Shown here: one piece after another, positions 31,618 to 34,482 of the stretch
Numbering within the stretch: position 1 is the stretch's first letter
Layout: each line of letters begins with the position of its first letter
Assembly: GCF_947648125.1 (NCBI RefSeq)
Contig: NZ_CANSMR010000012.1
Coordinates: 1 to 64,000, forward strand
Direction of reading: 5' to 3'
DNA length: 64,000 nucleotides
Source: an uncultured Bradyrhizobium sp.
GTDB lineage: Bacteria > Pseudomonadota > Alphaproteobacteria > Rhizobiales > Xanthobacteraceae
Translations under genes and position numbers: made by a program
The notes under the pieces: generated by a model
Databases searched by the model: none
The model's input: only the letters and a program-made list of their open reading frames with translations
What the model was told of the DNA's origin: nothing

Positions 31618-31795
31618 GCAGGGCAATCGCATATGGCAGCGAAAAGCTTGGCGTTGCGACTTCCACGTTCGTCATGGCCGGGCCTGTCCCGGCCATCCAC
31701 GTCTTTCTCACGCGGAAACCAAGACGTGGATGCCCGGCACAAGGCCGAGCATGACGAGTTTGCGGAGAGATCGAGCCAATATGCGATTGCCCTGC
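31618..31795. repeat. Nested palindromic repeats
   Basis: A perfect 17-bp inverted repeat (GCAGGGCAATCGCATAT at 31618-31634, inverse at 31779-31795) flanks an inner element at 31670-31756. The inner arms CGTCATGGCCGGG and CCGAGCATGACG, with CACGTCTT/AAGACGTG inside, match the element at 44297-44386. It lies between two co-directional minus-strand genes. Confidence 0.8.
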
Positions 31796-31858: not shown

Positions 31859-34294
31859 TTAGCGCTTGCGGCTTGCCTTGCGCGTCTTGCCAGCCGACCG
31901 CTTCCTGGCCGCGCCGCGCTTGGTTGCGGTCTTCTTGCTGGCGGCTGCGCGGCGAACCGGCGCGGCTGCTGCCGGACGCTTGCGCGCCACGGCCTTCTTG
32001 ACCGCTTTCCTCGCCGAACTCTTGGCTGCCTTCTTCGCCGCCTTCTTGGCTGCTTGCGGGCGCGCGCGCCGTGCCGTCGACGCGCTCCGGCGCCGTGCTC
32101 CACCTCCCCCAACGGGAACGATGTGGTCGTCGGCATCGAGTGTGAGCTGCTGGAGCTGATATGCCGGCAGGAAGCTCGGATCGTTGTAGAGCTTGCTCAA
32201 GCTGGCCTGATCGAACTTGCCGCCCTGCCCGCGGTCCTCGCCCGCACCGGCGCGCCAGGCCGCTTCCCAGACTCGCGCGAGTGTCTTGGCGCCGTCCTGC
32301 ATGCAGGCCGCCGTCGCATCCTTCAGCTTCGACCACAGCACATCGACCTGCCCGCTTCCCATATGTGAGTTGAACAGGTTGACGATCGTCATCGGCGGCA
32401 GCCGCTTCACGGTGCGCTGCATCAGCGCGACCACAGCGACCGCAGCATCGCGACCGGTCGGCGTGCCGCCCGCAACGATCTCCGCGACGTCGCTGGTCCG
32501 CGCGTCCGGGATCATCTTGATGAGATCCTTGCCGTGGCGGCCGATCATCGTGGTCTCGTACACGCTGTGCACCTTGGCGTGCTTCTTGTCGTTCGGATCG
32601 AGGCCATGATGGAATTGCGAGATGTGCAGCGGCTGGCAGGCATCGCCAATGTAGTGCGCGACGATTCCCGCGGCACAGACGAACTCCAACTTCTTGTTGG
32701 CGGCAGCATAGTCGACCATCTCGTCGAAGATCTGCCAGACCCGGAACGGCAACGCGCCGCGCCGGTCCTCGCCGATCCCTTCGTAGTAGTCGTTCCAGAC
32801 TTTTGGATCGACGTTGCGTGTGGACTCGGCACAAAGATCCAGCAGTGTCTTGCCGTCCTTGCCCGGCTTGTCCATGTCGGCGAAATGGTTGCTTTCGTCA
32901 GTGTGCCGGGTGAAGCGCCAGACCAGGTCGGCGACGTCGGCCAGCGGCGCGAATGTGCCTCGCTGATATGGCTTGAGGTCTTGGAGCAGCTTGTCGTCGA
33001 GGCCGATATTGTCGGAATTGGCGTCCATCATGGCCGAGAGCTTGGGAAGCTTCGCATCGATCAGGCTGGTTGCGTAGGCGCCGATCTTGACGTGTCCCCA
33101 TTCGCCCCAATACTCGGTGTGGCCGGCGTTCCAGTCGCCGATCAGCTCGACATCGAGCTCGCGGCACAGCGTCGCCATGCAGATGCCGAGCGCAACCTGC
33201 ATCGGAATCTTGCCGCCCGATCCGAACAATTCCTGGCCGCCCCATTCCAGCGCCAGGGGACTGAGGATGCGCGCGCCGCCGGCGTTCTTCTTCGCGTCCG
33301 GATCGTCGAGAAACCAGATCGTGCCGGAGTCGCCCGGATAGTTGTTGAGCGGCGTGTCGCTATCGCGCGGACCGATCACGAAATCGCTGACATACTCCAT
33401 GCCGCCGACGGTCTTGTAGCGATAGAACAGGCCGATGATCTTGCCCTTCATCAAACCGCTGGTCGCACCGAAGGCGATCAGCGGCTGGTTGATGATCTCG
33501 AGGCGGAAGGTGCCGACATTGAGATCGACGACGTCGCCGACCTGGCCGACGCCGTAAACCTGCGCGGTCCAGCCCTTGATGTCGTCGACGCGGATCAATC
33601 CGGCATCGAGATTGGCCACCACGCGCGCACCGGGCCAGCCGGGATAGACGTCGCTGAAGGCGCGCTTGCCGAGTTGCAGCGCATCGCTGACGCCGAGACG
33701 GCGCTCCGTGTTCTTGAAGCCGGCGAAGATCTCGCGCCCGGCCGCGCCGACCACGTGGCGGTTGGAGAGTGCAAACACGGTCTCGCCATTGGTGACGAGA
33801 CAGCCGATCGAGCCGCGATGGATCTTGCCCTGAATCATGGTCTGGACCGGAAAGCCGCCGCCAACCAGATCGCTCTTGAACACCGGCGGATCGACGACGC
33901 CGGGGCTGCCCTCGTTCGGGTCGACCTTGACGACGCAGGTGGGCACGACGCGCCCGTCCGGCAGATACAGGAACGGCGGCACCAGCTGGTCCTGCTTCTC
34001 CGGATGGTTCTTCAGCTCGGAGCGCTTCATCCAGTCCCGCACGAAGACGAGGATGCAGGGCCACGACCAGTCCTTGACCGACGAATTGAACAGCGTGCGC
34101 GGTCCGAGCGCCTGCGGCTTGGAATGGTGCCGCCGTTCGGTCGCGTTGCGGTCGTTGTCCCGGATCAGATAACGGCCAATCGCCGTGGCGTAGACCGACT
34201 GCAGATGGGCCAGATGCACATGATAGGCCTCGCGGGCATCGAGCAGATCCTTCACCGACAATGACGTGAAATCGTGCTTGGTGAGATCAATCAT
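31859..34294 (-). CDS. Trypsin-like protease / zinc phospholipase C (S1-P1-like) / histone-tail fusion protein
   Basis: The product has 811 residues and no signal peptide. Residues ~140-375 look like a trypsin-fold serine protease: His180 in SNRHVVG, Asp230 in NLDAGLIRV, Ser323 in YPGDSGTIW, a standard His/Asp/Ser triad order. Residues ~450-720 match the zinc phospholipase C/S1-P1 nuclease fold: SNHFADMD at ~469-475, then His547-Asp551-His557 (HYIGDACQPLH; spacing H-x3-D-x5-H) and His576-Glu580 (HSVYE). The Glu is as in phospholipase C rather than the Asp of S1/P1. The tail from ~735 is Lys/Arg/Ala-rich and histone H1-like. Domains are inferred from motifs; the function is unknown. Confidence 0.78.
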   Translation of the reverse strand: MIDLTKHDFTSLSVKDLLDAREAYHVHLAHLQSVYATAIGRYLIRDNDRNATERRHHSKPQALGPRTLFNSSVKDWSWPCILVFVRDWMKRSELKNHPEKQDQLVPPFLYLPDGRVVPTCVVKVDPNEGSPGVVDPPVFKSDLVGGGFPVQTMIQGKIHRGSIGCLVTNGETVFALSNRHVVGAAGREIFAGFKNTERRLGVSDALQLGKRAFSDVYPGWPGARVVANLDAGLIRVDDIKGWTAQVYGVGQVGDVVDLNVGTFRLEIINQPLIAFGATSGLMKGKIIGLFYRYKTVGGMEYVSDFVIGPRDSDTPLNNYPGDSGTIWFLDDPDAKKNAGGARILSPLALEWGGQELFGSGGKIPMQVALGICMATLCRELDVELIGDWNAGHTEYWGEWGHVKIGAYATSLIDAKLPKLSAMMDANSDNIGLDDKLLQDLKPYQRGTFAPLADVADLVWRFTRHTDESNHFADMDKPGKDGKTLLDLCAESTRNVDPKVWNDYYEGIGEDRRGALPFRVWQIFDEMVDYAAANKKLEFVCAAGIVAHYIGDACQPLHISQFHHGLDPNDKKHAKVHSVYETTMIGRHGKDLIKMIPDARTSDVAEIVAGGTPTGRDAAVAVVALMQRTVKRLPPMTIVNLFNSHMGSGQVDVLWSKLKDATAACMQDGAKTLARVWEAAWRAGAGEDRGQGGKFDQASLSKLYNDPSFLPAYQLQQLTLDADDHIVPVGGGGARRRSASTARRARPQAAKKAAKKAAKSSARKAVKKAVARKRPAAAAPVRRAAASKKTATKRGAARKRSAGKTRKASRKR

Positions 34295-34482
34295 CTGGTT
34301 CCTCCGAAAATGCGCTTTGCGGCAACCGGTTCAGGACGCAGAAATAGACGATCGCGGCGGCCCACGATCATGGGTTAGTTCACACAAGTAATACAATTTA
34401 AAAGGGATGACACGAATGTGACGGATCACGCGGCCTTCAGCCTGCGCGCGCGGTGTCGACTACTTCCGCTGAGCGCGGCCCT

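What the first reader, a model, noticed from the sequence alone, without database searches (positions are those of the whole stretch)
31859..34294. Fusion of a trypsin-like protease, a phospholipase C/S1-P1-like domain and a histone-like tail
One 811-residue protein carries a His180/Asp230/Ser323 trypsin-type triad order (SNRHVVG, NLDAGL, GDSG) and then the zinc pattern His547-x3-Asp551-x5-His557 and His576-x3-Glu580. It ends with a Lys/Arg/Ala-rich tail like histone H1. The H-x3-D-x5-H and H-x3-E spacings are those of zinc phospholipase C, and the Glu favours phospholipase over S1/P1 nuclease. I know of no named protein with this architecture. With no signal peptide and a basic tail, it might act inside the cell, for example as a damage- or phage-triggered effector whose protease controls the second enzyme. 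That role is pure inference.
Basis: partly seen in the sequence, partly recalled or inferred. Interest (0 to 1): 0.78.

Follow-up and report, generated by a model that had tools for sequence, protein, structure and literature searches.

The report
Self-activating protease–nuclease fusion zymogen candidate
A soil bacterium carries one protein in which a protein-cutting enzyme is joined to a DNA- or lipid-cutting enzyme exactly where the second enzyme normally needs a freshly cut end to work, which suggests a built-in self-activation switch that can be tested directly.

Summary

It aligns with the mature N-terminal Trp of S1 nuclease and a listerial phospholipase C, whose main chain holds a metal; in the latter, one extra residue in front abolishes activity. 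In most stand-alone relatives seen here this Trp follows a signal-like segment. The fusion shows none, and its protease ends about five residues upstream. Best reading: an intracellular zymogen whose protease cuts before W396 to switch on a phosphodiesterase. Cleavage, substrate and trigger are inferred.

It resembles protease-gated nucleases of Hachiman/AVAST defence, but is one chain with a different nuclease fold. PADLOC already holds the family as "trypsin-like". Defence neighbours do not recur. The histone-like tail is not universal.

The parts
31859..34294 (-). 811-residue protease + PLC/S1-P1 fusion gene
34301..34305 (-). GGAGG, likely ribosome-binding site, 6 bases before the ATG
   Evidence: sequence
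33875..34294 (-). residues 1-140, N-terminal region shared with NAL1
   Evidence: NAL1 alignments start at model residues 1-8; S77-W78-P79, P118 and C120 invariant
33125..33874 (-). residues 141-390, NAL1-like chymotrypsin-fold protease
33755..33757 (-). His180, catalytic triad
   Evidence: invariant in 19 of 19 aligned sequences
33605..33607 (-). Asp230, catalytic triad
   Evidence: invariant in 19 of 19
33326..33328 (-). Ser323, catalytic triad (GDSG)
   Evidence: invariant in 19 of 19
33110..33124 (-). residues 391-395, short linker and proposed cleavage site (Y395|W396)
   Evidence: pLDDT under 50 for 391-396; fixed spacing to W in 47 of 47 loci, Y, F or T before W; cleavage itself inferred
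33107..33109 (-). Trp396, equivalent of the mature N-terminal metal-binding Trp of S1 nuclease and listerial PLC
   Evidence: structural alignment begins at 396 against residue 21 of S1 nuclease and 1 of LmPC-PLC, at 395 in B. cereus PLC rows; invariant
32135..33109 (-). residues 396-720, PLC/S1-P1-fold phosphodiesterase domain
33092..33094 (-). His401, W-x4-H predicted ligand
   Evidence: invariant
32927..32929 (-). Asp456, predicted metal ligand (Asp453 also invariant)
   Evidence: invariant; role by spacing to H470, recalled from PLC
32885..32887 (-). His470, predicted metal ligand
   Evidence: invariant
32624..32656 (-). His547-x3-Asp551-x5-His557 metal motif
   Evidence: invariant
32555..32569 (-). 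His576-x3-Glu580 metal motif
   Evidence: invariant
31862..32134 (-). residues 721-811, Lys/Arg/Ala-rich disordered tail, not universal
   Evidence: pLDDT under 50; lacking in 9 of 12 distant sequences of A1

Best explanation
The protein is an intracellular zymogen with its activating protease on the same chain. The NAL1-like protease (1-390) sits directly before a PLC/S1-P1-fold phosphodiesterase whose first residue is W396. In this fold the main chain of a free N-terminal Trp holds one of three metal ions. While the chain is intact that amine is missing and the domain should be inactive. On a trigger, perhaps oligomerisation, the protease cuts between residue 395 and W396, in its own chain or a neighbouring one. 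This frees W396, completes the metal site and turns on an enzyme that attacks nucleic acid (more likely) or phospholipid inside the cell. The likely outcome is growth arrest or death of an infected or damaged cell. Shown here: architecture, predicted folds, invariant residues, Trp correspondence, fixed junction, patchy distribution. Inferred: cleavage, its position, the trigger, the substrate and the defence role.
For: Structural alignment starts at 396 against residue 21 of S1 nuclease, 1 of LmPC-PLC and 27 of SmNuc1. In profile alignments the WG..GH start falls on chain residue 1 of P1 nuclease and of endonuclease 2, though that stretch scores insignificantly on its own. [quoted passage not shown] PMC10576769 says, citing its reference 51, that one added residue before W1 turns LmPC-PLC off, and that this enzyme is a proenzyme cut by a protease. 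W396 and H401 are invariant in 19 of 19 aligned sequences although internal. The protease alignment ends at 390 and residues 391-396 are low-confidence. Spacing from protease end to W is identical in 47 of 47 loci, while the linker varies more in sequence than either domain (mean entropy 1.62 against 1.27 and 1.34 in 12 sequences). In 6 of 7 readable stand-alone relatives the same Trp follows a signal-like hydrophobic segment (9 loci tried). The position six before Ser323 is never Asp in 19 sequences, so Arg/Lys preference is unlikely. PMC12799240 reports trypsin-like proteases activating gated nucleases in Hachiman and AVAST, cutting HamM after Ile.
Against: No cleavage was observed or could be. 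The residue before W is not one conserved type (Y, F or T). Fixed linker length could also reflect rigid domain packing. In the B. cereus PLC and clostridial rows the structural alignment starts at 395, not 396, against residue 1, and W396 itself has pLDDT under 50, so the register at this residue rests on sequence as much as on the model. The only model has mean pLDDT 73.1 and pTM 0.52, and no metals; no coordinates were available to measure whether the linker can reach Ser323. The planned model of the domain starting at W396 was not obtained. No defence partner recurs. In the main Bradyrhizobium clade the gene sits at one stable site among housekeeping-type genes.
Confidence: 0.48

Rival explanations
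1. No self-cleavage. The protease acts on other proteins, and the PLC/S1-P1 domain works uncut with a rebuilt metal site in which the internal Trp has only a structural role. The fusion simply keeps two enzymes of one pathway together.
For: The residue before Trp is variable. Fixed spacing can come from rigid packing. NAL1, the nearest solved relative, acts on separate proteins (recalled).
Against: Trp and the W-x4-H ligand stay invariant although internal, and one extra residue is reported to turn off a related enzyme.
Confidence: 0.27
2. The enzyme domain is the sensor or inhibitor and the protease is the effector: substrate or metal binding by the PLC/S1-P1 domain releases a protease that attacks cell proteins, as in caspase-type cell death.
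For: The protease triad is fully conserved. Trypsin-like domains are common in predicted bacterial conflict systems (PMC7159879 passages).
Against: The metal-site residues of the C-terminal domain are as strictly conserved as the triad, which suggests an active enzyme. [quoted passage not shown]
Confidence: 0.13
3. A housekeeping or catabolic phosphodiesterase processed by its own protease, unrelated to phage defence. (This shares the cleavage step with the best explanation and differs in role.)
For: Shared flanks in the main Bradyrhizobium clade, housekeeping-type neighbours, no homologue in 50,697 phage records and none confirmed in the viral-contig scan.
Against: Patchy distribution (15 of 146 genus genomes), presence on plasmids, 66% identity between Sphingomonas and window copies while another Bradyrhizobium copy (L018) is 38%.
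Confidence: 0.12

Closest known systems
NARROW LEAF 1 (NAL1) serine protease of rice
   Different: Bacterial, and followed at residue 396 by a PLC/S1-P1 domain.
S1/P1 nucleases (S1, AtBFN2, SmNuc1)
   Different: Below the Pfam cut-off (23.3 against 29.5); Glu at the last ligand where S1/P1 has Asp (recalled); Trp internal; no apparent signal peptide.
Zinc-dependent phospholipase C (B. cereus, L. monocytogenes)
   Different: Below the Pfam cut-off (17.4 against 26.8); exported; the activating protease is a separate protein; the N-terminal motif here is S1/P1-like.
Protease-activated nucleases of Hachiman and AVAST, and caspase-activated Canu (PMC12799240)
   Same: A protease turns on a pro-nuclease; trypsin-like in Hachiman and AVAST, with the gene pair also in Lamassu and DRT.
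   Different: There the nuclease is a metallo-beta-lactamase-fold protein from a separate gene with gating loops, and the protease is fused to a defence enzyme. Here both are one chain, the nuclease fold differs, and the switch would be a new N-terminus.
NucA-trypsin conflict systems (PMC7159879)
   Same: Trypsin and nuclease domains may be fused in one protein (passages).
   Different: HNH-superfamily NucA nuclease, a different fold.
Het-C hydrolase domain (PMC3482391)
   Same: Proposed there to share fold and active site with zinc PLC and S1-P1 nuclease, in toxin contexts (passages).
   Different: Not compared with this protein here.
PADLOC-DB PDLC03017 'trypsin-like'
   Same: The model covers this whole architecture (L026, 1.1e-109, positions 4-608 of 611).
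   Different: No system or mechanism is given with it in the output, and it also matches a protein with a trypsin-like domain and an apparent P-loop (L038).

Membership tests
NAL1-like serine proteases | Pfam Nal1_C over its curated cut-off | tested here: met
   37.8 bits against 26.1; 19 of 19 members of A1 match at E up to 1
NAL1-like serine proteases | Fold including the N-terminal region | tested here: met
NAL1-like serine proteases | His/Asp/Ser triad | tested here: met
   Invariant in 19 of 19 aligned sequences
NAL1-like serine proteases | Proteolytic activity | not testable with these tools
   Needs an assay
S1/P1 nuclease (Pfam PF02265) | Score over the curated cut-off | tested here: not met
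   23.3 bits against 29.5; 18 of 19 members match at E up to 1, the best being this one
S1/P1 nuclease (Pfam PF02265) | Fold | tested here: met
S1/P1 nuclease (Pfam PF02265) | H-x3-D as last ligand pair (recalled) | tested here: not met
   H576-x3-E580, Glu in 19 of 19
S1/P1 nuclease (Pfam PF02265) | Mature N-terminal Trp binding metal | not testable with these tools
   Trp present at the equivalent place but internal in the gene product
Zinc-dependent phospholipase C (Pfam PF00882) | Score over the curated cut-off | tested here: not met
   17.4 bits against 26.8; 17 of 19 members match at E up to 1, best 0.00059
Zinc-dependent phospholipase C (Pfam PF00882) | Fold | tested here: met
Zinc-dependent phospholipase C (Pfam PF00882) | H-x3-D-x5-H and H-x3-E ligands (recalled) | tested here: met
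   Invariant in 19 of 19
Protease-gated nuclease pairs (Hachiman/AVAST type) | Adjacent separate metallo-beta-lactamase-fold nuclease gene | tested here: not met
   None among 10 proteins around the window gene scanned with Pfam at 1e-5; no neighbour shared by more than 4 of 17 loci
Protease-gated nuclease pairs (Hachiman/AVAST type) | Nuclease inactive until cut by the protease | not testable with these tools
   Needs an assay
Histone H1-like proteins | Basic tail conserved as part of the family | tested here: not met
   Lacking in 9 of the 12 more distant sequences of A1; present in L021 and short in L026 and L028; basic ends also in L035, L047, L048

The most novel reading that the evidence does not exclude
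A one-protein suicide switch: a NAL1-type protease matures, by cutting its own chain, a PLC/S1-P1 enzyme whose newly made N-terminal Trp becomes a metal ligand. Activation would be completion of a metal site by a neo-N-terminus, not removal of a blocking loop, and the cell would need no partner gene.
Probability: 0.4. Interest if true: 0.8.

Novelty: new variant of a known kind. Interest (0 to 1): 0.62.

Why it matters
Protease-activated nucleases have recently been shown in bacterial immunity; in the paper read in part (PMC12799240) the predicted nuclease is always a separate gene. A single chain in which the protease makes the N-terminal metal ligand of the second enzyme would be the same logic solved by different chemistry, and my searches found no other such fusion of this fold. 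It would also give a plant developmental protease, NAL1, a bacterial relative over most of its solved length, with a testable candidate substrate on the same chain.

Tried and rejected
Neighbourhood partner: 17 loci compared; apart from the gene itself the most widely shared neighbours were in four loci, all Paraburkholderia. PADLOC scan of 122 neighbours within 5 kb from 13 loci: 37 families at E up to 1e-10; the list is sorted by members and the 25 shown have one member each, including AbiEi, AbiEii, caspase, mad2, mad3, LeoA and LeoBC models. Defence-type genes occur near single copies, but none recurs.

Phage or viral carriage: no match in 50,697 phage records; in the viral-contig scan 7 stretches matched a pattern and none was confirmed. 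Four of 72,556 plasmid records match.

Literature on this exact fusion: searches listed no paper that I could recognise, from titles and abstract starts, as describing it. One search found no paper with all its terms. Supplements and preprints were not readable, and most subscription journals are not held.

Stand-alone nuclease subfamily: the A3 profile rang in 6 of 289 class genomes, five of them by short stretches; those readable are stand-alone S1/P1-like proteins.

Histone-like tail as a family feature: rejected, although basic tails recur in L021, L026, L028, L035, L047 and L048. Trypsin-type Arg/Lys specificity: position six before Ser323 is N, Q, A, S or G in 19 sequences, not Asp (equivalence to trypsin 189 is recalled and assumes no indel).

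Isolated model of the domain starting at W396, to compare with the full chain: not obtained.

Rows dropped: the 19-row alignment A1 holds the window protein and 18 of 28 loci. Left out were L011, L027 and L029 (interrupted), L008 (cut by its contig end), and L003, L004, L009, L014, L016, L023 (close to rows kept). The domain alignments A3 and A4 hold 14 rows, the entropy count 12.

Full report
What is there. The gene lies at 31859-34294 on the minus strand and encodes 811 residues, with GGAGG six bases before the ATG. The window is contig 12 of an 8.57 Mb genome; the closest named relatives are twelve Bradyrhizobium at 93-98% identity in the best segment. One genome scan gave 28 related loci: Bradyrhizobium, Sphingomonas, Paraburkholderia, Tardiphaga, Mesorhizobium, Lichenibacterium, two Rhizobiales bacteria and an Acidobacteria bin. 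Within the genus the PADLOC model rang in 17 of 146 genomes; two of these (loci L051, L054) show no blastp match to the protein, leaving 15 of 146, whose frames or junctions were seen. In the order, 5 of 387 genomes matched, three of them over most of the protein.

Conservation. In 19 aligned sequences (the window protein and 18 homologues, identity 97% down to 37%, six of them 94% or more), H180, D230, S323, W396, H401, D453, D456, H470, D473, D475, H547, D551, H557, H576 and E580 are all invariant. Synonymous change far exceeds replacement change in four close comparisons (dN/dS 0.066, 0.104, 0.096, 0.113); two distant comparisons gave 0.27 and 0.47 with synonymous distances near or above one.

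The helical domain begins with W396-G-x-x-G-H401, the start of S1/P1 enzymes. The structural alignment begins with 396 opposite residue 21 of S1 nuclease, 1 of the listerial phospholipase C and 27 of SmNuc1; in the B. cereus and clostridial rows it begins with 395 opposite residue 1. W396 itself has pLDDT under 50, so its register rests also on sequence: profile alignments put WG..GH on chain residue 1 of P1 nuclease and endonuclease 2, though those stretches are insignificant alone, and the Pfam S1-P1 profile is entered at position 1. [quoted passage not shown] In the listerial phospholipase C the W1 main chain binds a metal, W1 substitutions except W1F reduce activity, and one residue added before W1 turns the enzyme off, for which the paper cites earlier work (PMC10576769, passages and section 11). 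That enzyme is made as an inactive proenzyme cut by a separate protease. Of nine loci with stand-alone S1/P1-like hits from other genomes, seven gave a readable frame by my pattern; in six the same Trp follows a hydrophobic, signal-like N-terminus, and in one a Tyr does (judged by eye). So stand-alone enzymes appear to expose this residue by export. The fusion has no such segment; instead a protease domain ends at about residue 390.

The junction. In 47 of 47 loci the spacing from the end of the protease to the Trp is identical (24 distinct sequences; the pattern demanded it and no locus failed); the preceding residue is Tyr, Phe or Thr. The linker is more variable in sequence than either domain and has pLDDT under 50 from 391 to 396. 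Fixed length with free sequence fits a geometrical constraint: either rigid packing or presentation of a bond for cutting. Position six before Ser323 is never Asp in 19 sequences, so Arg/Lys preference is unlikely; the protease of the Hachiman fusion cuts its nuclease after Ile (PMC12799240, parts 1 and 2 of 6 read).

Mechanism proposed. The uncut protein should be inactive in its second domain because the metal-binding amine is an amide. A cut before W396 would complete the site. Whether the cut is in cis or in trans, and what triggers it, is unknown; in the Hachiman case, replacing the dHamA part with a dimerising leucine zipper gave a toxic construct, and the authors conclude that oligomerisation is needed. 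Nuclease is favoured over phospholipase at roughly 60 to 40 (my judgement): the N-terminal motif and Pfam ranking are S1/P1-like and the protein appears intracellular, sometimes with a basic tail, but E580 is phospholipase-like.

Context. No neighbour is shared by more than four of 17 loci. Ten proteins scanned around the window gene give no PADLOC match at 1e-5; by Pfam they include a LysR regulator, pirin, a flavodoxin-like reductase, a HAD hydrolase and a tRNA-editing domain. Eleven of the twelve close Bradyrhizobium loci share flanks on both sides of the gene; L008 ends at its contig end. The LysR neighbour is kept in relatives without this gene: of 29 loci examined two carry the gene, and in 15 of the other 27 sequence from the far flank (30.5-31.6 kb) lies within 1.5 kb of LysR, in four of these by under 100 matched bases. 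So the gene occupies a variable slot. The Sphingomonas copy is 66% identical to the window protein while another Bradyrhizobium copy (L018) is 38% identical, and four plasmids carry homologues: signs of horizontal movement. Several homologues are interrupted (L011, L029 and two of four plasmid copies). These features fit a dispensable or defence gene but do not prove a role. Against a defence island, the neighbours here are housekeeping-like.

What is known. PADLOC model PDLC03017 'trypsin-like' covers this whole architecture, for example L026 at 1.1e-109 over positions 4-608 of 611, and the second half of the window protein alone at 1.8e-11. The family is thus already in a library of known and candidate defence proteins, without a mechanism in the output seen. 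The same model also matches a protein with a trypsin-like domain and an apparent P-loop (L038), so it is mixed. My paper searches listed nothing that I recognised as this fusion; they cover the held library only, and I judged by titles and abstract starts.

Verdict. A real two-enzyme fusion with both sites intact; a new variant of the protease-plus-nuclease theme. The self-maturation mechanism is inferred from structural logic, not shown. Confidence in architecture about 0.97; in cleavage at the junction about 0.48; in a defence role about 0.45.

Noticed in passing
L029 (from 4107), L011, L027, L036 (5974-8270), L037 (5974-8324): Homologues interrupted by frame breaks at different places, including two of the four plasmid copies; repeated decay of the gene. 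Described only, not mended.
   Followed up: partly
L111 and L115 (G847:C1:2948139-2950491): A homologue read in two frames overlapping by two bases, at the border between the N-terminal region and the protease; a frame break, or coupled genes.
   Followed up: no
window 31669-31756: Short repeat just downstream of the gene that matches other Bradyrhizobium loci in both orientations (L084, L101); looks like a palindromic intergenic repeat.
   Followed up: no
L038 1420-3528: Trypsin-like domain followed by an apparent P-loop in a genome of the same family, matched by the same PADLOC model but with no blastp match to the window protein.
   Followed up: partly
L013 8001-10235: Sphingomonas copy 66% identical to the window protein, against 38% for another Bradyrhizobium copy (L018): a sign of horizontal transfer.
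   Followed up: partly
L015, L016, L017, L025, just downstream of the gene: In four Paraburkholderia loci proteins of one shared family lie directly downstream on the opposite strand; HipA-like by my reading, and the Pfam tally of the neighbours has two HipA_C members without naming them.
   Followed up: no
L021, L026, L028, L035, L047, L048, C-terminal ends: Basic Lys/Arg-rich ends recur in distant members although most lack them; could be repeated gains of a nucleic-acid-binding tail.
   Followed up: no
window 32534-34264, + strand: A 576-residue open frame antisense to the gene; most likely a GC-rich shadow frame.
   Followed up: no
L034 9974-12271 and L036 6272-7564: The Ensifer and Neorhizobium plasmid copies have Ser after the Trp (WS) where the other junctions seen have WG.
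   Followed up: no
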